The notes under the pieces: generated by a model | What the model was told of the DNA's origin: nothing | Databases searched by the model: none | The model's input: only the letters and a program-made list of their open reading frames with translations | Program-made: the position numbers and the translations under genes | Shown here: in pieces, positions 5,556-22,374 of the stretch | How positions within the stretch are numbered: position 1 is the stretch's first letter | Layout: the number at the start of each line of letters is the position of its first letter | Assembly: GCA_022509065.1 (NCBI GenBank) | Contig: JAFLTY010000002.1 | Span: 1-64,000, forward strand | From: Muribaculaceae bacterium | Lineage (GTDB): Bacteria > Bacteroidota > Bacteroidia > Bacteroidales > Muribaculaceae | Length of the DNA: 64,000 nucleotides | Direction: 5' to 3'

Positions 5556-6446
5556 TTACATAACGTTGAGCACCTGCTCTTTTATTTGCTCGAGTTCATC
5601 TTTCATTCTCACAACTATGTTTTGCATTTCGGCATGGTTGCTTTTAGAACCGAGAGTGTTGATTTCGCGGGTCATTTCCTGCGCGATAAAACCGAGCTTC
5701 TTTCCTTGTCCACCTTTGGGTTGGTTCATTGTCTCGATAAAATAATCGAGGTGTTGTCTTAAACGTTGCTTTTCCTCATTGACATCGAGTTTTTCGATGT
5801 AATATATCATTTCTTGCTCGAGTCGGTTTTTATCGTAATCAACTGCCGGTATCTTGGAAAGAGAGTCGGTAAGACGTTCTCGTATCTTTTCTACCCGTTC
5901 TGTTTCATATTTGTCGACCTGTGAAAGCAATTCGCGGATACGCTCAATGCGTAGGCTGAAAAATTCTTCCAATCGAAGCCCCTCGCTTCTACGGTAATCC
6001 ATCAATGCTTTCAGCGCGGATTTTGCTGTATTCATTACATCGACCAGCAGTGTGTTTGTGGTCTGTTCGGATTGATCGAATTCGTCGGTTGCCGTCACTA
6101 CGTCAGGTAACCTCAGTATTGTCGCATACCAATCCTCGGGCGCCGGAATACCGACAATTCTTGCTACTTCGGTCAGTTGATCCTTATATGCGGCAAAGAC
6201 ATCGGGATTGATGCGCGAAGAAGTACGAAAGTCCGTCCTTTCGATATTGATAATCAGATCTATTTTTCCTCTTTCGGCAATCGATGACACTAAACTACGC
6301 AACTCCGGTTCGATGGATCTGCAGCCGAAGGGCATACGACAAGTCAGGTCGAGTTGTTTGGAATTAAGAGACTTGACATCCGCGGTGATTTTACGGGTTG
6401 GAGTTTCTGTGATGTGGCTGCCGTATCCGGTCATTGAGTAAAGCAT
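5556..6446 (-). CDS. yicC: YicC family protein
   Basis: A 296-residue protein starting MLYSMTGYGSH, the characteristic YicC N-terminus (SMTGYG). The C-terminal part carries the DUF1732-type helical region, including NRLEQEMIYYIEKLDVNEEKQRL and the ending NTLGSKSNH...MKDELEQIKEQVLNV. YicC proteins are reported as endoribonucleases that act on small RNAs in enterobacteria; that role here is by family. It is the first gene of the minus-strand operon. A TAAATTTG box at 6514-6521 on the minus strand may be its -7 element, but no matching -33 element is seen. Confidence 0.92.
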   Translation of the reverse strand: MLYSMTGYGSHITETPTRKITADVKSLNSKQLDLTCRMPFGCRSIEPELRSLVSSIAERGKIDLIINIERTDFRTSSRINPDVFAAYKDQLTEVARIVGIPAPEDWYATILRLPDVVTATDEFDQSEQTTNTLLVDVMNTAKSALKALMDYRRSEGLRLEEFFSLRIERIRELLSQVDKYETERVEKIRERLTDSLSKIPAVDYDKNRLEQEMIYYIEKLDVNEEKQRLRQHLDYFIETMNQPKGGQGKKLGFIAQEMTREINTLGSKSNHAEMQNIVVRMKDELEQIKEQVLNVM

Positions 6447-6540
6447 AATCTCTGATTGTGTTGAAAGATGCTTAGAGTTAAACGTAAGGAGATGATGTGA
6501 AAAGTAGTTGACGCAAATTTACAAAAAAATCTGATATATG

Positions 6541-6609
6541 AGAGCCGGGTTTGACAATTTATCTTCTTTGACTCTTCAGCGCTTAACAGTTATTGTCGAA
6601 CCGGCTCTT
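6541..6609. repeat. Dispersed palindromic element, copy 1
   Basis: The arms AGAGCCGGGTTTGACAAT and ATTGTCGAACCGGCTCT face each other across about 33 bp. The minus-strand sequence starting TTAAGAGCCGGTTCGACAAT also opens the copy at 37892-37926, with one mismatch over 27 bases. It lies in the 496-bp divergent gap between yicC and the fimbrial operon, so it is not a gene-end terminator here. The rest of the gap (6610-6942) is very AT-rich and has no gene; a weak TATTTTTG box at 6782-6789 could belong to the fimbrial promoter. Confidence 0.6.
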
Positions 6610-6942
6610 AAGATACTGAAGATTGAGTTGTTGTACTTTCCAATATATAGAGGCAATAGATAAAAAATAAAAAAACTAAAAAGTGTTAACAAGGCATGGT
6701 AAAAATAAAAAGTAAGTTAAAAAATCATCTTTACTATAAAAAAAACCATTAAAAAAAGTTGTGTGAATTTGGAGTTATGTATATTTTTGTGCTTTGTAAG
6801 AAGATAGGCGATAAACGCATCGTTGTTTTTTCTTCAAAAATTCAAGTTATTTCATTGTTTTGTAACAAAATTGTTATTTTTATAAGCCAATCGTTTACAA
6901 ACCAAAAGAGACAAGGTTTAATCCGTCTGTCTTATAATAAAT

Positions 6943-7524
6943 ATGTGTTTAAAAAGATATTTACTAATATTGCTTACCATGGTTAGTCTTGCCGCAGTTA
7001 CAAAAGCGCAAGACGTTTCGGTAAAGACTAATTTGTTATATGACGCGCTCGCCAACGTCAATGCGGGAGCCGAAGTTAAGCTCGCTCCTCGATGGTCGGT
7101 TGATGTATCGGGCGATTTCAATTGCTGGACAATAAATGAACACAAGTGGAAGCACTGGTTTGCTCAACCCGAACTGCGTTATTGGTTTTGCGATGCCTTT
7201 GCGAAACACTTTGTGGGTGTCCATGCCATAGGCGGTCAATATAACGTAGGTAATATTAGTGGCCTCCCTAATTTTTTAGGTAATGATTTTTCTAAACTGG
7301 CTCATGAACGCTATCAAGGATGGGGCGTTGGCGGAGGTGTCGCTTATGGTTACGCTTTACCATTAAGCCATCATTGGAACATGGAGTTCGAAATAGGCTT
7401 CGGTTACGTTTTTCTTGATTACGACATATACGAATGCCACGATTGTGGTAAGAAAGTAGGCGATAAGAAACATCATTATGTTGGTCCGACAAAAGCCGCC
7501 ATTAATCTTGTTTACATATTTTGA
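6943..7524 (+). CDS. DUF3575 outer-membrane protein of fimbrial locus
   Basis: A 193-residue protein with a signal peptide (about residues 1-22, ending TKAQ) and alternating aromatic beta-strands typical of a small outer-membrane barrel. It ends in the strand AAINLVYIF with a terminal Phe. The segment VSVKTNLLYDALANVNAGAEVKLAPRWS is the DUF3575 hallmark. DUF3575 genes are regularly found at the head of Bacteroidales fimbrial clusters together with DUF3868. Here the stop codon is 20 bp before the chosen start of the DUF3868 gene. A cysteine pair (ECHDC, near residue 166) is notable. The role in pilus assembly is inferred. Confidence 0.8.
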   Translation: MCLKRYLLILLTMVSLAAVTKAQDVSVKTNLLYDALANVNAGAEVKLAPRWSVDVSGDFNCWTINEHKWKHWFAQPELRYWFCDAFAKHFVGVHAIGGQYNVGNISGLPNFLGNDFSKLAHERYQGWGVGGGVAYGYALPLSHHWNMEFEIGFGYVFLDYDIYECHDCGKKVGDKKHHYVGPTKAAINLVYIF

Positions 7525-11068: not shown

Positions 11069-12178
11069 ATGTCATTTTTTAAATCAGTAAAAAAAACGTT
11101 AACAGTCGCTATCGCCTCGATTGTCGGTCTGTCTTTCTCGTCGTGCGAGGATTTCTTCGATTACGAAGGCGATTGCGACGTTATCCACAAAGTCCGTTTT
11201 GTGTACGACCTGAACCTCAAATGGGCGGATGCTTTTCCGTCCGAGGTAAAATCGGTCAACCTTTACGTCTTTGATTCCAAAGGCATATTTGTCAGGGAGT
11301 ATTCCGAAAGCGGTGATGCTTTGTCACAACCCGGTTACGAAATAACACTCGACCTCCCAGCCGGCGACTACACTTTGCTTGCTTGGTGCGGTCTGCACAA
11401 CGAGGGTGTCGATAGTGAATCGTTCACTGTGCCTTCGCCTGTTGTCGGTGTCACTCATATCGAGGAGATGACCTGCGTCATGAATACTACGCCGACGCCC
11501 ACTAAGTCGCGCGCCGATGAGCCGATGGTTTATTCGGACCGTCGTCTGCAGTTTCTTTATCATGGGCTTCTCGATGTTACTCTCGAGGACAATCACGACG
11601 GTAAGGAGTACATACACACAGTCTCTCTAACAAAAGATACAAACCACATTCGCATCATTCTTCAGGAACTGTCCAGCGAGCAGGGACTCAACGAAGACGA
11701 TTACGAGATTTATATCGAGGATGCCGACGGTCGTATTGCCTATAACAACGACCTTATCGGCAGTCAGATTGTACATTTCTCGCCCTGGAGTCAGGTTACC
11801 GATGCGGTAGGCGTGGGTCGTGTCGAGGCTGGTGGTATCAAATATGTGAACGGACTTGTTGCCGATTTAAGCGTAGGTAGGATGATGGCTTCCCGACAGA
11901 ACGACATGATGCTTACAATCCGCAATGCCCATACGCATTCCGACATCATTGCGCGCGTTCCCCTTATCCAGTATGCTTTGCTCTCGCGTACTTATTATGA
12001 GATGGCATACGGACATACTATGACACCACAGGAATTTCTTGACCGTGAGGACGAGTATGTCTTGACGTTCTTCCTTTATAACCAGACATGGATGGGCGCT
12101 TACATCGACATCCTTTCATGGCGAATTGTCCTGGGTAATTACGACATGACATCTTATTCTTTTTGGGATAAAAATTAA
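11069..12178 (+). CDS. Mfa2/FimB-family fimbrial anchor lipoprotein
   Basis: A 369-residue lipoprotein with a signal sequence ending FSSC (Cys26). The family pattern follows: an N-terminal EGDC cysteine, then HKVRFVYDLNLKWADAFPSEVKSVNLYVFD and DLPAGDYTLLAWCGL. Mfa2/FimB proteins stay at the outer membrane, anchor the pilus and limit its length. Unusually, its C-terminus (YIDILSWRIVLGNYDM) closely resembles that of the stalk protein upstream. It sits between the stalk gene and a 471-residue accessory lipoprotein gene. Confidence 0.85.
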   Translation: MSFFKSVKKTLTVAIASIVGLSFSSCEDFFDYEGDCDVIHKVRFVYDLNLKWADAFPSEVKSVNLYVFDSKGIFVREYSESGDALSQPGYEITLDLPAGDYTLLAWCGLHNEGVDSESFTVPSPVVGVTHIEEMTCVMNTTPTPTKSRADEPMVYSDRRLQFLYHGLLDVTLEDNHDGKEYIHTVSLTKDTNHIRIILQELSSEQGLNEDDYEIYIEDADGRIAYNNDLIGSQIVHFSPWSQVTDAVGVGRVEAGGIKYVNGLVADLSVGRMMASRQNDMMLTIRNAHTHSDIIARVPLIQYALLSRTYYEMAYGHTMTPQEFLDREDEYVLTFFLYNQTWMGAYIDILSWRIVLGNYDMTSYSFWDKN

Positions 12179-12222: not shown

Positions 12223-13638
12223 GTGACAATGGTGAAAGCTTTTCAACATATCATCGTGATGCTCCTTATGTTAGGATGTCTCCCCGCTGTGACATCCTGC
12301 GTCATGGAGAAAGCCTTCGACGCGCCCGGTAGCGGTGATGACGATGACAAGCTGTATGTTTACCTTAACATCACTCCGCTCAATTCTGTCGTTAACACTA
12401 CAGCAACCGACAACGAGTATGTCAAGTCATTGCGTATCGTGTTGCTTTCCGACGGCATGATTGAACGCAACGAATATGTCCCTCTCGATCAGCTTGCAGT
12501 CACCCTGACTTATCGCTCGCGCATGGAAACTGTGGAGGGTAGGAAAGAATTCTATCTTATCGCCAATGAGGAAAGTGTCGGACCTGTCTCCTTTATGCCG
12601 TCTGACGGCGTCTCGCTGCCGAACCCTTTGCCCGAAGGCACTCTCCACCAGTTGCTTGAGAGCTATACACCCGAATTCTCGGTTGAGGATGTAAATGAAA
12701 ATACCGGGGGCACTTCCGATAACGCTCCAACTAAAGGCGAGGAACTCGCAGCTCTGTTAAACGCCGTGTATTTCTCACCTGAATACACTGCCGGTGATGA
12801 TGGGCGTATTTATCTGCCGTATGTCTCTTATTATGGCACGTACGACATAGAAAAGGGCGTCGATCATTCGCTTACGAATCCGGATGGTATTTTCGACCCT
12901 AATCCCAACCCCATCAACATGTATCTGGTGCCTGTTGCCACTAAATTCACTTTCAACTTCACCAACTATCGTGAGGATGCGGTGAATATTAACGAAATTA
13001 CCATCAATAGCGTTAACAGTCAGAACTATCTGCTCGCAAGAGTGGGGGAAAATGATATGACAAAAAGACTCCCAGGTTCTGACGACGACCTCTATTGGAT
13101 CGACTGGCTCGGTGAAGTGTCCCATCTTTCCCAGAGCAATGCCGGTTTCTATCCCAATATCAATTTTAATGGAAAGTATGGATGGATAACTGACTACGCG
13201 TTGCCTTTCGAAACCGAAACCAATACCGCCAATCAGTATACCTTTATTGGCGGCAACATTCAAGGTTTCAAAGTGCTTGGAGGAGCAAAGGACAATCCCT
13301 ATTTCTGCACCGTTGGTCCTTTTTATATCCCGGAAAGTAAAAACTTTTATAACCCGATTACTGAGCAGAATGAGGATGAACAGGCATATTACCTGACGTT
13401 CAATTTTGAGGATACCAAGGTAGGCGAGGATCCGCAGGAGTATCAATACGTCAACATTTCCAACCTTAAAGCGTTGTTCCGCAATACACATGTTATCATT
13501 AACATTAAGATGGAACCGGGTCCCATTAAAGTGTATGCCGAGATAGCTCCCTGGATTGTGAAATCTATTAACGGATGGGTTACCGAAGGCGGTGTGCCTA
13601 ACCCCAATCCCTTCAAGATCAAAGCCGCAGATAAATGA
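12223..13638 (+). CDS. Fimbrial accessory lipoprotein (Mfa-like, minor subunit 1)
   Basis: A 471-residue lipoprotein; the lipobox AVTSC places Cys26. A second ATG (12229) is an equally good start. Two beta-sandwich regions are suggested by LYVYLNITPLNSVVN and VATKFTFNFTNYREDAVNINEITINSV. The C-terminal pattern HVIINIKMEPGPIKVYAEIAPW resembles the end of Mfa/Fim accessory subunits. The gene overlaps the next by four bases (ATGA at 13635). It is probably a minor subunit between shaft and tip. The exact Fim/Mfa letter name cannot be assigned from sequence. Confidence 0.7.
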   Translation: MTMVKAFQHIIVMLLMLGCLPAVTSCVMEKAFDAPGSGDDDDKLYVYLNITPLNSVVNTTATDNEYVKSLRIVLLSDGMIERNEYVPLDQLAVTLTYRSRMETVEGRKEFYLIANEESVGPVSFMPSDGVSLPNPLPEGTLHQLLESYTPEFSVEDVNENTGGTSDNAPTKGEELAALLNAVYFSPEYTAGDDGRIYLPYVSYYGTYDIEKGVDHSLTNPDGIFDPNPNPINMYLVPVATKFTFNFTNYREDAVNINEITINSVNSQNYLLARVGENDMTKRLPGSDDDLYWIDWLGEVSHLSQSNAGFYPNINFNGKYGWITDYALPFETETNTANQYTFIGGNIQGFKVLGGAKDNPYFCTVGPFYIPESKNFYNPITEQNEDEQAYYLTFNFEDTKVGEDPQEYQYVNISNLKALFRNTHVIINIKMEPGPIKVYAEIAPWIVKSINGWVTEGGVPNPNPFKIKAADK

Positions 13639-14954
13639 AAGGTAGGATGAAACAATTCTTTTACATATTTGCTTTATTGCTTTTTTCGGCTTGTTCTAAT
13701 CATATTATTGATGACGAACCGGAAAATATCGACAGTGATGAAGTAAAGACTATCTCGGTAATGTCTCATTTGCCCAAATCGGCAGGTGGCGTTGACACTT
13801 ACGCCGACGATGCGGAATCGGGAGACAACTCCCAATCGAGTGGTGCGTCTGACAATATTATCATCGACAAGTTCGAGGAGGGTAGCCTGCTTTATATTTC
13901 GCAAATGGGTCCGAGCATTAATCCCAATTTCAGCGATTTCTCTACGGATGCAGAATCTTACTGCTACGTCTATCAGTACTCCGAAAACCCTTCTGCCAAC
14001 TGGAATTACGATTATAATTTCATCCTTCCTGAAAATGATGATTTTGAGATTCCGGGTGTTGTCGGAGAGGGAAGCTCTGGTGTAAGAAACCCCATCAAAT
14101 GGAATGTCATCAAGCAAATGGGTTCGGTCGGTAATTCTTTTAATTTCTATGCATTCTTTTTCCCGGTCGAAAACGAGGTGAGATGGAGTGTAGAGGAAGA
14201 CCAGAGGGGGCCGGAAACAAATCGTTACGATCAGACTAATTTTAGGAAATCAGACATACTCGGTGCATACCACACTACCTCCTCCCTATACAGCCGTCTG
14301 CGCTTCAACCTTTTCCACCTGATGGTTTACCTGAAGGTGACTCTTTATGTGCCTGATGTCCAAGATGTGGCAGACGATACATCTAATTTCAAGTATTCGG
14401 GATTTGACGAAACCGCGCTTCAAGGAGCATATGTGCTGAACGCGGCTAAAGATTTTGAAATAGAGTGGCGCGCCAGCCGAAGTTCTGACACGGATCCGCC
14501 TCTGACACAGGCAAAATCTAACAAAACCAATATCCGGATGTATTTGCACGAACCCGATTATAAGGTTTTTGAATTAGAGAATATTAAAAGTTCATTCAAT
14601 CCCAGTTATCAAGGTGAGGATACAGAACAAGTTCGCGAATACAATTTCAGCGTTCTATTCCCCAACCAGTCTTTCAATGGCAACTTTTTGTGCTTTGCAC
14701 TGAAGGATAAGGAGGGTAACATGCGTTACTTCTATTTTGCCAGCAATCAGATTAACGGCTCAAGCGGTAACTATGGTTTTGCACCGGGAACACTGCAGGA
14801 GCTAAAGTTATTCCTTCCGCGCGAAACCAACCAGACTATTCTCATAAGCGCCAACGTTCTCCCATGGTCGAGTGCCGTAACCGACATGACGGTGTCTCAA
14901 CAGGGTGCGACTGACAAGAATGATGATAATCCGACAGGAAGCGACAACAACTGA
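13635..14954 (+). CDS. Fimbrillin-family lipoprotein (minor subunit 2)
   Basis: A 439-residue lipoprotein with lipobox LFSAC (Cys20); a start at the fifth codon (13647) is possible. It shows the general fimbrillin signature: an N-terminal strand region, then SDILGAYHTTSSLYSRLRFNLFHLMVYLKVTLYVPD around residues 198-235, where the H-L-M-V-Y-L strand is typical, and a C-terminal LISANVLPW strand. It overlaps the upstream gene and is probably translated with it. It is likely a pilin of the distal fibre. No beta-helix region is seen. Confidence 0.7.
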   Translation: MKGRMKQFFYIFALLLFSACSNHIIDDEPENIDSDEVKTISVMSHLPKSAGGVDTYADDAESGDNSQSSGASDNIIIDKFEEGSLLYISQMGPSINPNFSDFSTDAESYCYVYQYSENPSANWNYDYNFILPENDDFEIPGVVGEGSSGVRNPIKWNVIKQMGSVGNSFNFYAFFFPVENEVRWSVEEDQRGPETNRYDQTNFRKSDILGAYHTTSSLYSRLRFNLFHLMVYLKVTLYVPDVQDVADDTSNFKYSGFDETALQGAYVLNAAKDFEIEWRASRSSDTDPPLTQAKSNKTNIRMYLHEPDYKVFELENIKSSFNPSYQGEDTEQVREYNFSVLFPNQSFNGNFLCFALKDKEGNMRYFYFASNQINGSSGNYGFAPGTLQELKLFLPRETNQTILISANVLPWSSAVTDMTVSQQGATDKNDDNPTGSDNN

Positions 14955-14979: not shown

Positions 14980-16458
14980 ATGAATAGCTATTTATATCGA
15001 TACATATCTTGCCTCAAGGTGGCGTTGGGATGTCTGCTCGCCCTGCCGGCCGTCGTGTCGTGTACCAATGAGGTACCCGAGATTGTCGACCCCGAAACTG
15101 GTGCCTCGATAACAGTAAGTGCCGATATAGCCAATACGCTGTTTTCAAGAACCTATATCGAAAAAGGACAGGTAGATAAAGGTACTCTATATATCTCTTA
15201 CCCCACAACTTCTAACAATGTTTATGCGACTTTGCCGGTCCAATTCGGAGTGGAGGGAGTTTCCCCTCAGATTGGTATGGTGCAAACGGGCGATCCCGAC
15301 AAGAAATTCGCCTGGACCATGGTCAGTGACTTCGCCACGCCGACTTTTTACCTTGACAACGTCAGTATCGATGGTTATACAGTAGATCGTGAAGCACCCA
15401 ATATAGTTATTTTCGACGATACGAATAATCCTTTCCGTGCCGGTAAATTTGATGATGAAAATGGAACAAACGACTTGCTATGGGGTGAAAAACAGGTCAG
15501 CAGGCAGTCTACCAATACTTTGGTTTTCGACCTGCACCACAACATGTCACGAATTCGTCTCGAGATTACTGTAGATAAGACCAATGTTGCTGATGACAAT
15601 TTTGACCTTGAGACAGGTGCTAAAGTCTCTATTTCGTCCATAAATCAGACTCCGGTTTCGTACAATCGTCTTGACGGTACATTGGCACTTGACTCCGAAC
15701 CCAAAGACGGAGTAAGTCCTTACTCCGATCTGACTTTTGTCAACATAGGATCTGAAATTGAAGCAAAGGATGTAATCGGTTGGGCTAAGGAACCGCAGCA
15801 AGACCCTGCAAATGAAAAAGTATGGGTTTATACTACTTACGATTTTGTTGTTCCTCCGCAGGGTCTTCTTGATGATGAAAACCGTCCCCGTCTCACCATC
15901 GAGACTAAAAACGGAAAGACCTATTCGGGTATCCTCCCTCACGCTATGCTGATTACCGACCCAAACAAACCAGGCGATACCGAATTGACATATCCGGTAA
16001 CAATGTATTTCCTCAAGGAGCATATTCTGACCATCCGTACCCGCATAACCGAAGAACCTCCGACACTGTCGTTCATGCCTGTTCAGGTTGTTCAATGGGT
16101 TGACAAGGGCACTTTCTCGCTCGAAGGTCATCAGGCAGGTCTATATTTCGCCCAAGAATTCTACAAGCTTATAGGTTACTATACTAACTATAACGAATAT
16201 CAGTTGACACGTTACGGCACAAAATCACCGGTAGAACAAGGTTCGAGTGTCTATAAGTGGACGTTCCCGGTATTCCGTTCTTTCACTGTTAAATACGAAG
16301 ATGTTTATGGAAAAATGGTTCCCGGAGGCGAAAAGCTTGATTTCGAATTTGTCTTTAACGGTTATTCGGTGTTCGTCACTAAAGATGGTGAAACCAAATC
16401 GGTCACTCCTAACCAGTTATCCGGTATTGTAAAAGGTACCTCTTCGGCACCTTTCTAA
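14980..16458 (+). CDS. Fimbrillin-family lipoprotein (minor subunit 3)
   Basis: The ATG at 14980 is preferred over an in-frame upstream one at 14905, because it begins a clean lipoprotein signal (MNSYLYRYISCLKVALGCL, lipobox VVSC, Cys28) and avoids a 50-bp overlap. The mature part has the fimbrillin pattern DLLWGEKQVSRQSTNTLVFDLHHNMSRIRLEITVD. After the usual terminal strand region (FMPVQVVQWVDKG) it continues for about 115 residues with aromatic-rich sequence of unknown fold. That extension is unlike a stalk pilin and suggests a cap or adaptor role. Confidence 0.7.
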   Translation: MNSYLYRYISCLKVALGCLLALPAVVSCTNEVPEIVDPETGASITVSADIANTLFSRTYIEKGQVDKGTLYISYPTTSNNVYATLPVQFGVEGVSPQIGMVQTGDPDKKFAWTMVSDFATPTFYLDNVSIDGYTVDREAPNIVIFDDTNNPFRAGKFDDENGTNDLLWGEKQVSRQSTNTLVFDLHHNMSRIRLEITVDKTNVADDNFDLETGAKVSISSINQTPVSYNRLDGTLALDSEPKDGVSPYSDLTFVNIGSEIEAKDVIGWAKEPQQDPANEKVWVYTTYDFVVPPQGLLDDENRPRLTIETKNGKTYSGILPHAMLITDPNKPGDTELTYPVTMYFLKEHILTIRTRITEEPPTLSFMPVQVVQWVDKGTFSLEGHQAGLYFAQEFYKLIGYYTNYNEYQLTRYGTKSPVEQGSSVYKWTFPVFRSFTVKYEDVYGKMVPGGEKLDFEFVFNGYSVFVTKDGETKSVTPNQLSGIVKGTSSAPF

Positions 16459-16519: not shown

Positions 16520-18292
16520 ATGAATATAAACCAATCAATAAAAGCTGTTATATCGTCTGTCATAATGCTGACGGCGGTGTCGTGTAACGAGGCGTGGGAT
16601 AACCCATCCGAAGATGGTGTGTCATATCCTCTCGTTGTATATGCTGAAATTGTCGGACAGGTTAAGTCTGAGAGCCGGGCTAACCGTACCGAAATCAACG
16701 ACATGTGGTCAATTACGGCATTCACCGAGAATGACAAAATCGGCATCTTTGCCTCCGCCGGTAACTTCGCTGATGATAACGGCCCCTTTAATAACTATGA
16801 ACTGACCTATTTGGTCTCCGCTGACGGTGAAATGTTTAAAGGTGAGGACGGTGCCACGTTCAGTCCAACGGCTATGAACGGAAACGAAGCGGTCATATAT
16901 TATCCTTACAGTAAAGATGTTACGAATCCCGGCATGTGGTTGCGTACCACTGCCGAGGGAGAAACATCACCGTTGCGCTGCGTTGATATGCTCGTCTCGA
17001 CTGAGTTGGTAATTGCTGGGGAAAATAGCGCTCTTTACGGTAAAATGGGACATCTGTTTGCCGAGCTGATAATTATGCGTGGCCCCGGTTTTGATGATCC
17101 TCCCCAGGGTTTGGATCGAATTACGGCCGTGCTGTCCGACCCTGTCACACGGGTAAAAATCGAAATGACGACCGATCCCTGGAATTGCGTTCCTGAAATG
17201 GTTTATATCGAAAATGACGGAAACATGACAAAGGATGATGCACGAAAATGGGACGCATGGAAAGGTGGCGAATTCCAACCTACCGAACAAGATGAAGGTA
17301 AACCGGCATGGTATGTTATTGTTCCTACCGTCGGCAGTAACGAAGGTATAACAAGACCCGGCAATCGCTCGATAGTCGACTATATAGAACTGTATGACAA
17401 TCAAGGTCACTTGCAAAGGGTTTCCGGACTGCAGTTAAGCGGACACAATTCGAAATATGTGGATGCTGGATGGCGCTATCCTTTAGAGATAACCATGAAC
17501 GAGCTTGTGCCTACCGTCAGTGTCTTTCCAATTCTGCCTTGGGGTGAGGATATCAACCTCACTGACGAAAGGAAAAGAGGTATCAACAACTTAGCCGAGT
17601 TTGCTAACTGGATACATGACTACAATTTGTATGTGCTCACTCCCGAGAATGAAGAAAAAGTCCAGGCGTTGTTGAAATACGGTGACAAATATCAGGATCC
17701 GGAAGGCAAAATTTCGTGGCACTTCTATTTGCTGACCGACATCGATCTTACCAATTATAACCCGTTGCCGTATGAAGACTTGAACGGTTCAACCATAACC
17801 GAATCGGAATTTATACTGCCTAAACTGCAGGATATCCTTGATGGCAAAAGTACAACATTGGTTAACGGTAAGTTTTTGAACCATAAGATAATTGGTCTTA
17901 ACAAAACTTTTGTCGGTGAAATGACCACCAACTCTTCGAATCAGAACAACGGTTCTATCCAGAATGTAGACTTCGTTAATCCCGATGTCAAAAAAGAAGA
18001 AACCTCGGATACTCCTACCGGAATTATCGCCAATTCGATGAACGGTGCGTCGGTTATTAATTGTCGGATTCTTCAGGGTAGCCTATACAATCCCGGAGGC
18101 CCTGCCGGAATGATAACAGGTACCATCAACGACGGTACGATCAGAGATTGTTCCGTTTCCAATTTCATGGTATGTAAATCCACCGCCACCGGCGATGCTT
18201 CAAGAATTGTAGGGGTGAACCCCACAGGTGAATGTACCTTTGTAAACAATAATGTTGATGTCGCGATGAATAATGAAACAGAGCAACCATGA
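16520..18292 (+). CDS. Fimbrillin-family lipoprotein with beta-helix-like C-terminus (minor subunit 4)
   Basis: A 590-residue lipoprotein with lipobox AVSC (Cys22). The first ~345 residues are fimbrillin-like (SITAFTENDKIGIFAS; VIYYPYSKDV; MGHLFAELIIMRGPG; the strand TVSVFPILPWGED). The remainder changes character to short repeated strand-turn units such as GSIQNVDFVNPD, GASVINCRILQGS and GTIRDCSVSNFMV, as in right-handed beta-helices of the GLUG type. It overlaps the next gene by four bases. The pattern suggests a surface-exposed binding module carried on a fimbrial domain. Function is inferred. Confidence 0.65.
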   Translation: MNINQSIKAVISSVIMLTAVSCNEAWDNPSEDGVSYPLVVYAEIVGQVKSESRANRTEINDMWSITAFTENDKIGIFASAGNFADDNGPFNNYELTYLVSADGEMFKGEDGATFSPTAMNGNEAVIYYPYSKDVTNPGMWLRTTAEGETSPLRCVDMLVSTELVIAGENSALYGKMGHLFAELIIMRGPGFDDPPQGLDRITAVLSDPVTRVKIEMTTDPWNCVPEMVYIENDGNMTKDDARKWDAWKGGEFQPTEQDEGKPAWYVIVPTVGSNEGITRPGNRSIVDYIELYDNQGHLQRVSGLQLSGHNSKYVDAGWRYPLEITMNELVPTVSVFPILPWGEDINLTDERKRGINNLAEFANWIHDYNLYVLTPENEEKVQALLKYGDKYQDPEGKISWHFYLLTDIDLTNYNPLPYEDLNGSTITESEFILPKLQDILDGKSTTLVNGKFLNHKIIGLNKTFVGEMTTNSSNQNNGSIQNVDFVNPDVKKEETSDTPTGIIANSMNGASVINCRILQGSLYNPGGPAGMITGTINDGTIRDCSVSNFMVCKSTATGDASRIVGVNPTGECTFVNNNVDVAMNNETEQP

Positions 18293-20679
18293 CGGAAATA
18301 TTTAAACGACATATTGCGTGGTGTTTGATAACACTGTTGGTAATGCCTTTCATGCTGACGGCATGTAGCGATGATTTCGAAATTCCGACAAACGGTTATG
18401 AAACAAGCGACGAACTCCCCGTAGAATTCGAGTTTCTTCTACCCGAAGACTTGGGGTCAAGAGGTTTTGCTCCTGACGAAACCGTAAAAACGAAATTTGA
18501 GGATGGCGATGTCATTCATTTGTTTGGCACTTTCAAGACCCGTATCCTCCAGGAAAACGGTAATTATATAGATGGTCCCATAGTTAAGCGATATGGTGCT
18601 TTGAAATATAACGGTAAGCTGTGGAGACCGGTCGAAGGCTCGACCCTAACATGGCCGTCGATATCGGTGTCTGGTACCTTCGTAGCTTATTACATCAAAG
18701 AAAGTAACGGTGTGCTTAACAGTGAAAAATCGAGTGAAACCTACAACCTGTCGTCCGTCACACCCTCGTCTGACCCGCTTAAGGCTGAGTCGGAACCGGA
18801 TGTTCCTTACGGAAACGGTCTTAGGATGAGGTTCGGTCACCTTTGTGCGTATCTTGCGCTAATCGACCTCGAACCTATGGTAGCCGAACGGTATTGGTTC
18901 CTGACAGACAATGTTAAGGAATCGGCCGATGGTCCCAACAAGATTTTTAACAATGCTTTCAAGATATCCCTGAACGAAACTACTGAAGGGCCCGAAGTCA
19001 TTTTCGAATTCTGTCAGGTTGGGGGCGAAAAAGGTTATGAAAACTTGACATATATAGCCGGTAATGTGACAAATATCGAGGGTTCCGACCAGGATAACAA
19101 CCTGCAGGTTACCGCACGAGCCGGTTTCTTCCTTGAGCCCGGATTTTATGAGTCGTTCGAGCTCGTTTATCCTTCGGGTCAAGGCAAGACCTACAGCTAC
19201 CTTGAATACAATTACAAAAACGTTCCTGATAATTCGGGTGGTGTCGGAGTAACAAACACTCCCCCCGATTTGAAAGCAAACAAGTCTTATACTCTCACTA
19301 TTACCAAATCGCCAGGTATTACTGTGAACACCCCTCCGGTGGCAGGTGGCTGGGATGAAAGCGAAACCTATTTTGATATAGATGTCGAGGAGTTCCTGAA
19401 AGCCATTAATGATGAGAAAGAATATAAAGTTAAAGATGAGTACGGTAATGATGTAACCATTCTCGAGGAGACTCCAAACGGAACCAAGCTTCTTCATAAT
19501 GTAGATTTTAAAAATTTTGATTACTCAAAGTTTAATGATCAGACGTTCCGTGCTAATAATATGGAAGGATCGGTGTTCGACGGTGATTATCACTATATTA
19601 GAAATCTGGGCAGTCCTCTTTTCAGATATAACTTCGGAACGATTCAGAATCTTGGAATCAAAGGTGCCAAAATTGAGCGCGTGTCCTATGAGGATAAGGA
19701 CCTGAACAATGATATGAGCCGAAACGGAGCGCTGTGCATGTGGAACCGAAGCAATGCAACCATATCGAATGTGCGCCTATCGGACGTCGAGATAACTATT
19801 TATATAAAATCGGTAGATTCGGAAGGTCAGGAAGCACACAATATCGGCGGTATAGTAGGTGCCAATACAGGTGTCATAAACGGAGCTGCCATATCGGGTA
19901 CATACAATATTACGGTTACCGGACTTGCCGCTGATAATGAGTTAAATAAAGACAAAAAGAATTACCCCGTAAACGCATCTGTACTTATAGGTGGCATCGC
20001 GGGGCAGAATGCCGGTGAAGGCGATATATACGACGTGTCACCGCTTGAAGGTTCCCCGGTCATCAACATTTACAACAATTGTGTGGGACCATTGGGCGCC
20101 TATTCTGTTGGAGGCGTTATCGGTGAATCTCAAGGTTATATTACCGGAGTCATTCTGCCTTACATCAAGGTAGACGCTACAAAGAGCAGTGGTCTGACAT
20201 CTTATATCGGAGGTATTGTCGGTCAGTTGGCAGTTTCGACAGACTCAGACAATGCCGTGCTCAACGAATGCGTGGTGAGCGGAACGGTAAGGGCCGGTGT
20301 GTCACAAGGATTGAATGCAAGCGGCCTGTCCAGTGTGTCGTTCATCGGCGGAGTGGCTGGCACTGTTTTGAGCGTTCCGGTTTTGGATTGCAGTTCAGCT
20401 GTATCGGTCTATGCCACGACAGAACCGAAAGCCGGAGTACTTTACGGAACCGGTGGCGCTTTCGGTCGTATCCGCAAGTCGGAAAGTTACAACATAAAAG
20501 ACATCACTGCATACGGCAATGAGTTGATTGCTCCGGCTGGAATTACAACCAACAATTATTACGGAAGCTTTGCCGGGATAGTTCCTGCCGGTCAGACGTG
20601 GATTGATGATTACAGCAAAAGCAACATCACCATCCACAGATTCCCCAACATGAGTGAAATCGGAGGTGATATCGATTGA
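18289..20679 (+). CDS. Fimbrillin / GLUG beta-helix lipoprotein, candidate tip adhesin (minor subunit 5)
   Basis: This is the largest protein of the locus: 796 residues, lipobox MLTAC (Cys26). A fimbrillin-like region spans roughly residues 40-365, with RMRFGHLCAYLALIDL and the strand PPVAGGWDESETYFDI. A long beta-helix follows, built of repeated GLUG-like turns: IGGIVGANTG, IGGIAGQNAG, VGGVIGESQG, IGGIVGQLAV, IGGVAGTVLS, GTGGAFGRIR and YYGSFAGIVP. GLUG repeats occur in large surface adhesins. The fusion of a pilin domain to a helix makes this the best tip-adhesin candidate. The ligand is unknown. Confidence 0.7.
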   Translation: MTEIFKRHIAWCLITLLVMPFMLTACSDDFEIPTNGYETSDELPVEFEFLLPEDLGSRGFAPDETVKTKFEDGDVIHLFGTFKTRILQENGNYIDGPIVKRYGALKYNGKLWRPVEGSTLTWPSISVSGTFVAYYIKESNGVLNSEKSSETYNLSSVTPSSDPLKAESEPDVPYGNGLRMRFGHLCAYLALIDLEPMVAERYWFLTDNVKESADGPNKIFNNAFKISLNETTEGPEVIFEFCQVGGEKGYENLTYIAGNVTNIEGSDQDNNLQVTARAGFFLEPGFYESFELVYPSGQGKTYSYLEYNYKNVPDNSGGVGVTNTPPDLKANKSYTLTITKSPGITVNTPPVAGGWDESETYFDIDVEEFLKAINDEKEYKVKDEYGNDVTILEETPNGTKLLHNVDFKNFDYSKFNDQTFRANNMEGSVFDGDYHYIRNLGSPLFRYNFGTIQNLGIKGAKIERVSYEDKDLNNDMSRNGALCMWNRSNATISNVRLSDVEITIYIKSVDSEGQEAHNIGGIVGANTGVINGAAISGTYNITVTGLAADNELNKDKKNYPVNASVLIGGIAGQNAGEGDIYDVSPLEGSPVINIYNNCVGPLGAYSVGGVIGESQGYITGVILPYIKVDATKSSGLTSYIGGIVGQLAVSTDSDNAVLNECVVSGTVRAGVSQGLNASGLSSVSFIGGVAGTVLSVPVLDCSSAVSVYATTEPKAGVLYGTGGAFGRIRKSESYNIKDITAYGNELIAPAGITTNNYYGSFAGIVPAGQTWIDDYSKSNITIHRFPNMSEIGGDID

Positions 20680-20701: not shown

Positions 20702-22330
20702 ATGAATATAAAAAAATTAATATATAGCAGTAAAATAAACGTCATCGGGTTGCTGCTTGTCATGGCGGTTATATCATCCTGTCAGTCGCAATTACGCGAA
20801 CCCGATATGTCGGATGAAAAAGTAACGTTCATCGGCTATTTAAAAGAAGATGCCGAAGTCAGGTCACGCACACTCGACTCGGTTTATATCAACTCAACCT
20901 ATCAGGATCTTGACTTTTTTGTTCAGCTCGAATGGGGTACGCAAAAAGAATTCGGAATCTATGAGGTATCATCGGCCTACGAAGGTCGTTTAAATGCCAA
21001 AGGAACTCAAGATGAGCTTAACTGGAAAGATCTTACAACTCCACACACCTTTTATTCTTGGACACTTCCCTGGAATCCCGAATGGGATCAGACACAAGGA
21101 GTGCCTGAGTCTTTCGAGATTGAATTTAAAAATTCATCGGAAGGTGACGATTATAACGATGCGTTGAACAACAAGGTTTTGGAACGTTTTATAGGAGCGA
21201 TGTCGGGACCGTATTCCTATGCAAACCGCGGCAAATATGTCGACCTTACATTTTTCCATCTTGTGTCAAAGATAAAGATAGCCGATCTTTCACTGATTGA
21301 GACGGACGGCTCAATTCAGAGACACCTTAAGGCAGACGTGACGTTTATCAACATGCCGACGAAGGCCACATTCTATCCGTGTCCGACAGAAGATCAACTT
21401 GCAAACAATCAATATGCTCCCAAAATCAGGCGACCCTTTGTTGTGCCAGGCGAGGCTAATCTCGACGACGGTATCACGTACTTTATAGATAATGATGCCA
21501 GGGATCAAACCGATGTATTCTATATCTGTCCGGAAATAGACTTCCGAGAGCTCGATTATAAAATAGTGCTGAACAATACGGAATATGCAAACTACAAAAC
21601 ATATTATGGCACATTCGCAAATGTAGAGTTTATCAGAGAAGCCGGGAACGATTATGATTTGGGTGATGAGGACAAATACATACTCCATGCGGGAGAGATG
21701 ATGACTCTTTACATATCTCTTATACCCGGTATCGGACCCGGTTTGAGACTGATTATAAGCGACTGGAGTACTGACAGACCTACCGAAGCTGAATATCACA
21801 GCCAGCCGGGTATATACTCGGATGCAGAATTTAACGCGTTTTTAGATTCGTTCCTCAACCAAACGGATTATAGCCAACCGCCAGCTAATATTGAGAGCTT
21901 ATTCGAAATGTATGGCAAAGAAGGTGAAGATGGTAACAATTATTTCCAGCTTTTTGACGATGTTTTCAGTAACAGCAATATCTTTCCGGTCTATAAAGGT
22001 TATACAATCGACGGACAAGGACATACCGTCTTTATGAAGACAAATCGCGGTAATTATTTCCCGGATAGACCCGGCGACCATTACTATTTTAATATAGGTC
22101 AGTGTGAGGATATTTATCTTAAAAGCGAAAGCGATAATCCCCAGTATGGAATTTATATAGATAAAAACCACTGTGTATGGGTGCTAAACGCTGATACAGG
22201 AGAGTATGAACAGACAGAGTATAAACTTGATCCGTTCCCGCTGAAAGACCCTTATAAAGGTTATGATATCAGTGCTGAAACAGGGCAGGTGCGTCCGACG
22301 GATTATTACAACAATAATATTACAAGATAA
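20702..22330 (+). CDS. Fimbrillin-like lipoprotein, terminal gene of locus (minor subunit 6)
   Basis: The ATG at 20702 is chosen because it starts a lipoprotein signal (MNIKKLIYSSKINVIGLLLV, lipobox ISSC, Cys27) and lies 22 bp after the previous stop; an in-frame ATG at 20654 would overlap that gene. The product has about 542 residues. The middle has fimbrillin features (DLTFFHLVSKIKIADLSLIE; GEMMTLYISLIPGIGPGLRLIISDW). The C-terminal ~150 residues include YTIDGQGHTVFMK and YYFNIGQCEDIYLKSES, resembling the first turns of a GLUG beta-helix. The gene is followed directly by a strong terminator, so it ends the operon. Confidence 0.65.
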   Translation: MNIKKLIYSSKINVIGLLLVMAVISSCQSQLREPDMSDEKVTFIGYLKEDAEVRSRTLDSVYINSTYQDLDFFVQLEWGTQKEFGIYEVSSAYEGRLNAKGTQDELNWKDLTTPHTFYSWTLPWNPEWDQTQGVPESFEIEFKNSSEGDDYNDALNNKVLERFIGAMSGPYSYANRGKYVDLTFFHLVSKIKIADLSLIETDGSIQRHLKADVTFINMPTKATFYPCPTEDQLANNQYAPKIRRPFVVPGEANLDDGITYFIDNDARDQTDVFYICPEIDFRELDYKIVLNNTEYANYKTYYGTFANVEFIREAGNDYDLGDEDKYILHAGEMMTLYISLIPGIGPGLRLIISDWSTDRPTEAEYHSQPGIYSDAEFNAFLDSFLNQTDYSQPPANIESLFEMYGKEGEDGNNYFQLFDDVFSNSNIFPVYKGYTIDGQGHTVFMKTNRGNYFPDRPGDHYYFNIGQCEDIYLKSESDNPQYGIYIDKNHCVWVLNADTGEYEQTEYKLDPFPLKDPYKGYDISAETGQVRPTDYYNNNITR

Positions 22331-22332
22331 GA

Positions 22333-22374
22333 GCAAGAGGCTGCCTAACTTTTTATCGTTAGGCAGCCTCTTGC
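22333..22374. terminator. Bidirectional terminator between fimbrial locus and maeB
   Basis: A perfect 17-bp stem (GCAAGAGGCTGCCTAAC and its complement) encloses an 8-base loop, TTTTTATC, two bases after the last fimbrial stop. The genes on either side converge, so the stem can end both transcripts. No long T-run follows. Confidence 0.8.

What the first reader, a model, noticed from the sequence alone, without database searches (positions are those of the whole stretch)
18289..20679. Pilin domain fused to a seven-turn GLUG beta-helix
The 796-residue product combines a fimbrillin-like half with repeated (I/V)GG(I/V)xGxxxG units typical of GLUG beta-helices. Such a pilin-helix fusion is a strong tip-adhesin candidate, with a fold different from the usual lectin-like tip modules.
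Basis: partly seen in the sequence, partly recalled or inferred. Interest (0 to 1): 0.65.

Follow-up and report, generated by a model that had tools for sequence, protein, structure and literature searches.

The report
Pilus tip-type protein with beta-helix
A gut Muribaculaceae bacterium encodes, at the end of a type V pilus operon, a pilin-like lipoprotein whose tail is a nine-rung beta-helix, probably a sticky module at the pilus tip; it always travels with two sister proteins and replaces the giant tip protein that its relatives use.

Summary
The 796-aa ORF at 18289-20679 is intact and joins a type V pilin half (residues ~45-355) to a confident C-terminal beta-helix (AlphaFold2 on 13 orthologues: mean pLDDT 81, helix core ~90-96). 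The helix has about nine rungs, seven with the GG motif. Foldseek's best solved matches are Bacteroides fimbrillins. GLUG (PF07581) is sub-threshold in this protein but over its cut-off in two orthologues. All 13 orthologues keep Cys26, Arg58 and Trp355, the positions of the type V lipidation, cleavage and interdomain-Trp landmarks.

The unit is larger than one gene. E is fifth in a six-gene block A-F after mfa1-mfa2. D-E-F are adjacent in all 31 loci examined; D is a paralogue of E with a shorter helix-like tail, and F shares the pilin-helix junction. The block is patchy (14 of 397 Muribaculaceae genomes, plus Alistipes). Other genus members instead carry a 970-1,205-aa protein there, usually after one adaptor. 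Best reading: an alternative tip cassette of a type V pilus, with E a helix-bearing terminal subunit. Tip position is inferred; binding is untested. Rival: the helices are a scaffold and gene C is the adhesin.

The parts
18289..20679 (+). Protein E, 796 aa: lipoprotein signal with Cys26; pilin half ~45-355; beta-helix 356-796
   Evidence: ORF; model pLDDT 81; invariant C26, R58, W355 in 13 orthologues
18289..18366 (+). Signal peptide and lipobox ending in invariant Cys26 (LTAC)
18460..18462 (+). Invariant Arg58, position of the type V maturation (Rgp-like) cleavage site
   Evidence: 13/13 orthologues; cleavage itself inferred from PMC5789003
18421..19353 (+). Pilin half, residues ~45-355, ending at invariant Trp355
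   Evidence: Mfa_like_1 22.7 bits sub-cutoff; Foldseek to 4h40, 3t2l, 4k4k, 4qdg
19354..20676 (+). C-terminal GLUG-like beta-helix: capping helix 366-374, about nine rungs from residue 429
   Evidence: BFVD match to an IgA1 protease-like protein
16520..18292 (+). Protein D, 590 aa: pilin half plus shorter helix-like tail, paralogue of E; overlaps E by ATGA
   Evidence: Mfa_like_1 32.7 bits; hhalign D-E prob 95.8, E 6.8e-9 over 455 columns
20702..22330 (+). Protein F, 542 aa: pilin half plus ~190-aa tail sharing the pilin-helix junction
   Evidence: hhalign E-F prob 69, E 4.3e-5; invariant C27, R56, W355
14983..16458 (+). Protein C, 491 aa: pilin with ~110-aa tail; homologues 1652 and 2136 aa in Alistipes
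   Evidence: Mfa_like_1 34.3 bits; locus tables
13635..14954 (+). Protein B, 439 aa, lipoprotein with a short donor-like C-terminal tail after Trp
   Evidence: sequence; synteny
12229..13638 (+). Protein A, 469 aa, lipoprotein with a short donor-like C-terminal tail after Trp
   Evidence: sequence; synteny
11069..12178 (+). Mfa2-type anchor
   Evidence: PF08842 180.8 bits
9139..10974 (+). Mfa1-type major pilin
   Evidence: NF038041 145.6 bits, cut-off 130
22333..22374 (.). 17-pair stem-loop closing the operon, terminator-like
   Evidence: pattern scan

Best explanation
E is a terminal (tip) subunit of a type V pilus. It is exported as a lipoprotein (Cys26). A trypsin-like protease then cleaves at Arg58, as Rgp does in P. 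gingivalis, opening a groove that accepts the C-terminal strand of a neighbouring subunit. Shaft and anchor end in a short donor-like tail after a conserved Trp (here WRIV...Y); in E the equivalent Trp355 is followed directly by a capping helix and about nine GLUG-like beta-helix rungs. E can therefore accept but probably not donate a strand, so it would end the fibre with the helix pointing outwards as the contact module, in company with D and F, in place of the ~1,100-aa tip protein of related pili. Shown: architecture, landmarks, synteny, replacement pattern. Inferred: cleavage, tip position, ligand binding.
For: Predicted fold of both halves; fimbrillin crystal structures as the best PDB matches; GLUG-type helix matches; invariant C26, R58, W355; position after Mfa1 and Mfa2; six-gene block in order in the loci read in full and D-E-F adjacency in 31 of 31; other genus members carry a 970-1,205-aa protein at the same place. 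PMC5789003: anchor first strand not cleaved, Mfa1 C-terminal tail needed for polymerisation, tip protein Mfa3 has 105 residues after its Trp and its C-terminus is dispensable.
Against: No binding or localisation data. C, D, E and F all lack the short donor tail, so not all can end the same fibre unless the tip is a complex or there are alternative tips. The helix is slightly more conserved than the pilin half (mean 50 versus 47%). The ~10 residues between Trp355 and the capping helix could still donate a short strand. The donor-strand mechanism of type V pili is itself described as not fully settled in the papers read.
Confidence: 0.58

Rival explanations
1. The helices of D and E are a structural scaffold: they pair or stack to build a rigid tip platform, and another subunit, most likely C, carries the adhesive activity.
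For: D and E are full-length paralogues always adjacent, often overlapping by ATGA; helix glycines and loops are conserved; gene C varies from 469 to 2,136 aa between lineages, the behaviour expected of the adhesin.
Against: Nothing shows D-E contact; F and D tails are more variable than their pilin halves.
Confidence: 0.25
2. E is a cell-surface lipoprotein adhesin that is co-expressed with the pilus but never enters the fibre.
For: It keeps an intact lipobox; GLUG helices also occur in proteins without a pilin half.
Against: Invariant R58 and W355 and the pilin fold make most sense for strand exchange; strict synteny inside the pilus operon.
Confidence: 0.12
3. The helix is an enzyme of the pectate-lyase-like kind acting on mucus or plant glycan.
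For: Beta-helices of this general shape include polysaccharide lyases (general knowledge); a weak Peptidase_M26_N similarity covers the helix onset.
Against: Pfam and NCBIfam scans show no catalytic family; the M26_N model is the N-terminal region, not the catalytic one; conserved residues are mostly structural Gly and Asn.
Confidence: 0.03

Closest known systems
Type V (FimA/Mfa1) pilus tip proteins of Porphyromonas gingivalis, Mfa3 in particular
   Same: Lipoprotein pilin of two beta-sandwich domains, Arg cleavage position, interdomain Trp followed by an extra C-terminal region, gene downstream of mfa1-mfa2
   Different: Mfa3 has about 105 extra residues of unknown fold; E has about 440 residues of beta-helix, and the tip block has six genes instead of three
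Mfa5 of P. gingivalis
   Same: Large ancillary tip protein with a non-pilin binding-type domain
   Different: Mfa5 has a vWF domain, Ig-like domains and a type IX secretion signal and does not depend on gingipains (PMC7835359); E is a cleavage-type pilin with a beta-helix
GLUG motif (PF07581) beta-helix proteins, including the N-terminal region of M26 IgA1 proteases
   Same: Repeated GG-turn rungs and helix onset FDG..H.I.NL
   Different: Here the helix is fused behind a fimbrillin domain; the profile score of E itself is sub-threshold
Adaptor plus ~1,100-aa tip protein of other genus members
   Same: Same place after mfa1-mfa2
   Different: No homology to B-F by profile search; only weak DUF4906 or FimA similarity

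Membership tests
Type V pilin (fimbrillin, FimA/Mfa family) | Lipoprotein signal with Cys | tested here: met
   C26 in 13/13
Type V pilin (fimbrillin, FimA/Mfa family) | Arg in the loop cleaved at maturation | tested here: met
   R58 in 13/13; position only, cleavage not tested
Type V pilin (fimbrillin, FimA/Mfa family) | Two-domain beta-sandwich fold | tested here: met
   Foldseek E 3.6e-5 to 7e-4, probability 1.00, five fimbrillin-type chains; TM-score by target only 0.33-0.47, so the domain arrangement is approximately matched
Type V pilin (fimbrillin, FimA/Mfa family) | Pfam Mfa_like_1 over cut-off | tested here: inconclusive
   22.7 of 27 bits; six of 13 orthologues match at E<=0.1, none listed reaches the cut-off; paralogue D is over it (32.7)
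Type V pilin (fimbrillin, FimA/Mfa family) | Operon with Mfa1 major pilin and Mfa2 anchor | tested here: met
Type V pilin (fimbrillin, FimA/Mfa family) | Incorporated into pili by strand exchange | not testable with these tools
   needs experiment
GLUG motif beta-helix (PF07581) | Profile over curated cut-off | tested here: inconclusive
   E 15 bits, orthologues L040 21.9 and L041 25.0 against 20.5
GLUG motif beta-helix (PF07581) | Beta-helix with GG turn per rung | tested here: met
   handedness not measured

The most novel reading that the evidence does not exclude
A previously undescribed type V pilus tip architecture: a mobile six-gene cassette in which paired helix-tailed pilins (D, E, with F) form a beta-helical tip complex that substitutes for the usual giant tip protein and determines what these gut bacteria bind.
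Probability: 0.35. Interest if true: 0.65.

Novelty: new variant of a known kind. Interest (0 to 1): 0.45.

Why it matters
Type V pili are widespread in gut Bacteroidales, yet the tip modules and ligands of most are unknown. A conserved beta-helix module that stands in for the giant tip protein gives a defined, expressible domain (residues 356-796) for ligand screens. It also gives a natural test of the C-terminal donor-strand model: subunits whose C-terminus is a folded domain should be terminal.

Tried and rejected
Single-sequence folding gave nothing usable. Sequence search of the PDB with the protein and with the profile found nothing. No relative in the phage collection or the viral contigs, so a phage origin is not supported; the best BFVD fold match (A0A8S5VQE1) carries no name and was not pursued. 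The first genome-contig scan with the single protein found none; the alignment query found 12. NCBIfam gave no name for A-F apart from chance-level hits. A widespread fimbrillin-GLUG family was considered: of about 30 best Mfa_like_1 loci in 60 Bacteroidales genomes none carries a GLUG array, and the GLUG-region loci inspected show GLUG proteins without a recognisable pilin half (by eye only); these samples are small, so other such fusions are not excluded. Papers with both 'GLUG motif' and 'fimbrillin': none in the library; only four papers mention GLUG domain, repeat or motif.

Full report
Observation. The ORF at 18289-20679 (+) is real, intact and single-copy in its genome. Its C-terminal half holds (I/V)GG(I/V)xG at residues 519, 567, 607, 640 and 686 and two degenerate copies at 721 and 758; shuffles of the same composition give 0.02 strict copies on average and never more than 2.

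Relatives. Within Muribaculaceae, 14 of 397 genomes (6 of 30 genera) carry a homologue at E<=1e-10. Outside the family, two Alistipes records carry it, and one other genome in a broad sample of 295 Bacteroidales shows a relative. None was found in phage or viral collections. The distribution is patchy: in the window's own genus only one other species of those searched has it.

Fold. With 13 orthologues at 32-66% identity, AlphaFold2 gives mean pLDDT 81.4, pTM 0.65, with the helix core at about 90-96. Strands recur in sets that define about nine rungs from residue 429 to the end, after a capping helix at 366-374. Rung boundaries were read from the secondary-structure string, not from coordinates. 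Handedness was not measured; right-handed is inferred from the family. The PDB search returns Bacteroides fimbrillin-type adhesion proteins as the best matches (4h40, 3t2l, 4k4k, 4qdg, 3up6, 4gpv, and Mfa2 5nfi), E down to 3.6e-5. The viral library returns a putative IgA1 protease and algal-virus proteins at TM-score 0.2-0.27 of the query. GLUG is sub-threshold in E but over the cut-off in the L040 and L041 orthologues.

Type V landmarks. Cys26, Arg58 and Trp355 are invariant in 13 orthologues. In P. gingivalis the first strand is removed by cleavage at an Arg, the anchor Mfa2 keeps its first strand, the short C-terminal tail of Mfa1 is needed for polymerisation, a Trp near the C-terminus sits between the domains, and the tip protein Mfa3 has 105 further residues after its Trp with a dispensable C-terminus (PMC5789003). 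E has the same order of landmarks, with the beta-helix where Mfa3 has its extra region. Equating R58 and W355 with these sites is by position, not by structure superposition.

Neighbourhood. The operon runs from two upstream genes at 6943 and ~7539 (no firm family assignment) through Mfa1 9139, Mfa2 11069 and then A-F to 22330, followed by a 17-pair terminator-like stem-loop. Mfa1 and Mfa2 end in similar donor-like tails after a Trp; A and B also have short tails; C, D, E and F have long ones. D is a paralogue of E across pilin and helix onset (hhalign probability 95.8, E 6.8e-9, 455 columns), and C and F form another pair (87.8, 3.3e-6, 409 columns). E and F share the junction region. D, E and F are adjacent in all 31 loci examined, some of which are the same place fetched twice, and D and E overlap by ATGA in the window and several relatives. 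In L039 the block lies upstream of the mfa1-mfa2 genes on the same strand instead of downstream, so it appears to move as a unit. In Alistipes gene C grows to 1,652 and 2,136 aa.

Replacement. Fourteen Mfa2 neighbourhoods from the same genus were read, one of them the window genome's own second locus, truncated by a contig end. The other thirteen have a large ORF of 970-1,205 aa downstream of Mfa2, usually after one adaptor of about 370-600 aa, and none matches B-F; one adaptor matches A weakly. The large proteins show only weak FimA, Mfa1-family or DUF4906 similarity. The A-F block thus stands where relatives keep a giant tip-type protein.

Function. The best-supported reading is a terminal pilus subunit whose helix is the exposed contact module. 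Supporting points are position, landmarks, the absent donor tail and the replacement pattern. Against a simple adhesin story: the helix is not faster-evolving than the pilin half (50 versus 47% mean identity; 70 versus 62% to the closest orthologue), and four proteins share the terminal-type C-terminus, so the tip must be a complex or exist in alternatives. A scaffold role for D-E with C as adhesin stays open.

Novelty. Type V pili, fimbrillins and GLUG helices are each known. The combination in a conserved six-gene tip block was not found described in the held literature, which lacks most subscription papers, so priority is not claimed.

Noticed in passing
L040 1529-7939; L043 3067-8025: Alistipes homologues of gene C are 2,136 and 1,652 aa, three to four times the Muribaculaceae size; almost no Pfam match beyond a sub-threshold Mfa_like_1 or DUF7402.
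   Followed up: partly
L039 / L011 2635-17900: The A-F block precedes the mfa1-mfa2 genes on the same strand instead of following them, so the block seems to have moved as a unit; its gene C is split into two frames (5623-6267, 6203-6955).
   Followed up: no
G000:C46 (locus L072): The window's genome holds a second, different Mfa1-Mfa2 locus cut by a contig end.
   Followed up: no
window 18289-20679, residues Cys661 and Cys701: Two cysteines one rung apart in the helix are conserved in 12 and 13 of 13 orthologues; a rung-bridging disulphide is possible.
   Followed up: no
window 18289-20679, residues 475-487: Strongly conserved loop DMSRNGALCMWNR between the first two helix rungs (D475, S477, N486 invariant or nearly so); candidate contact site.
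   Followed up: no
L045 1243-4203: A 987-aa relative of E in another Bacteroidales family, with weak D-like and F-like neighbours.
   Followed up: no
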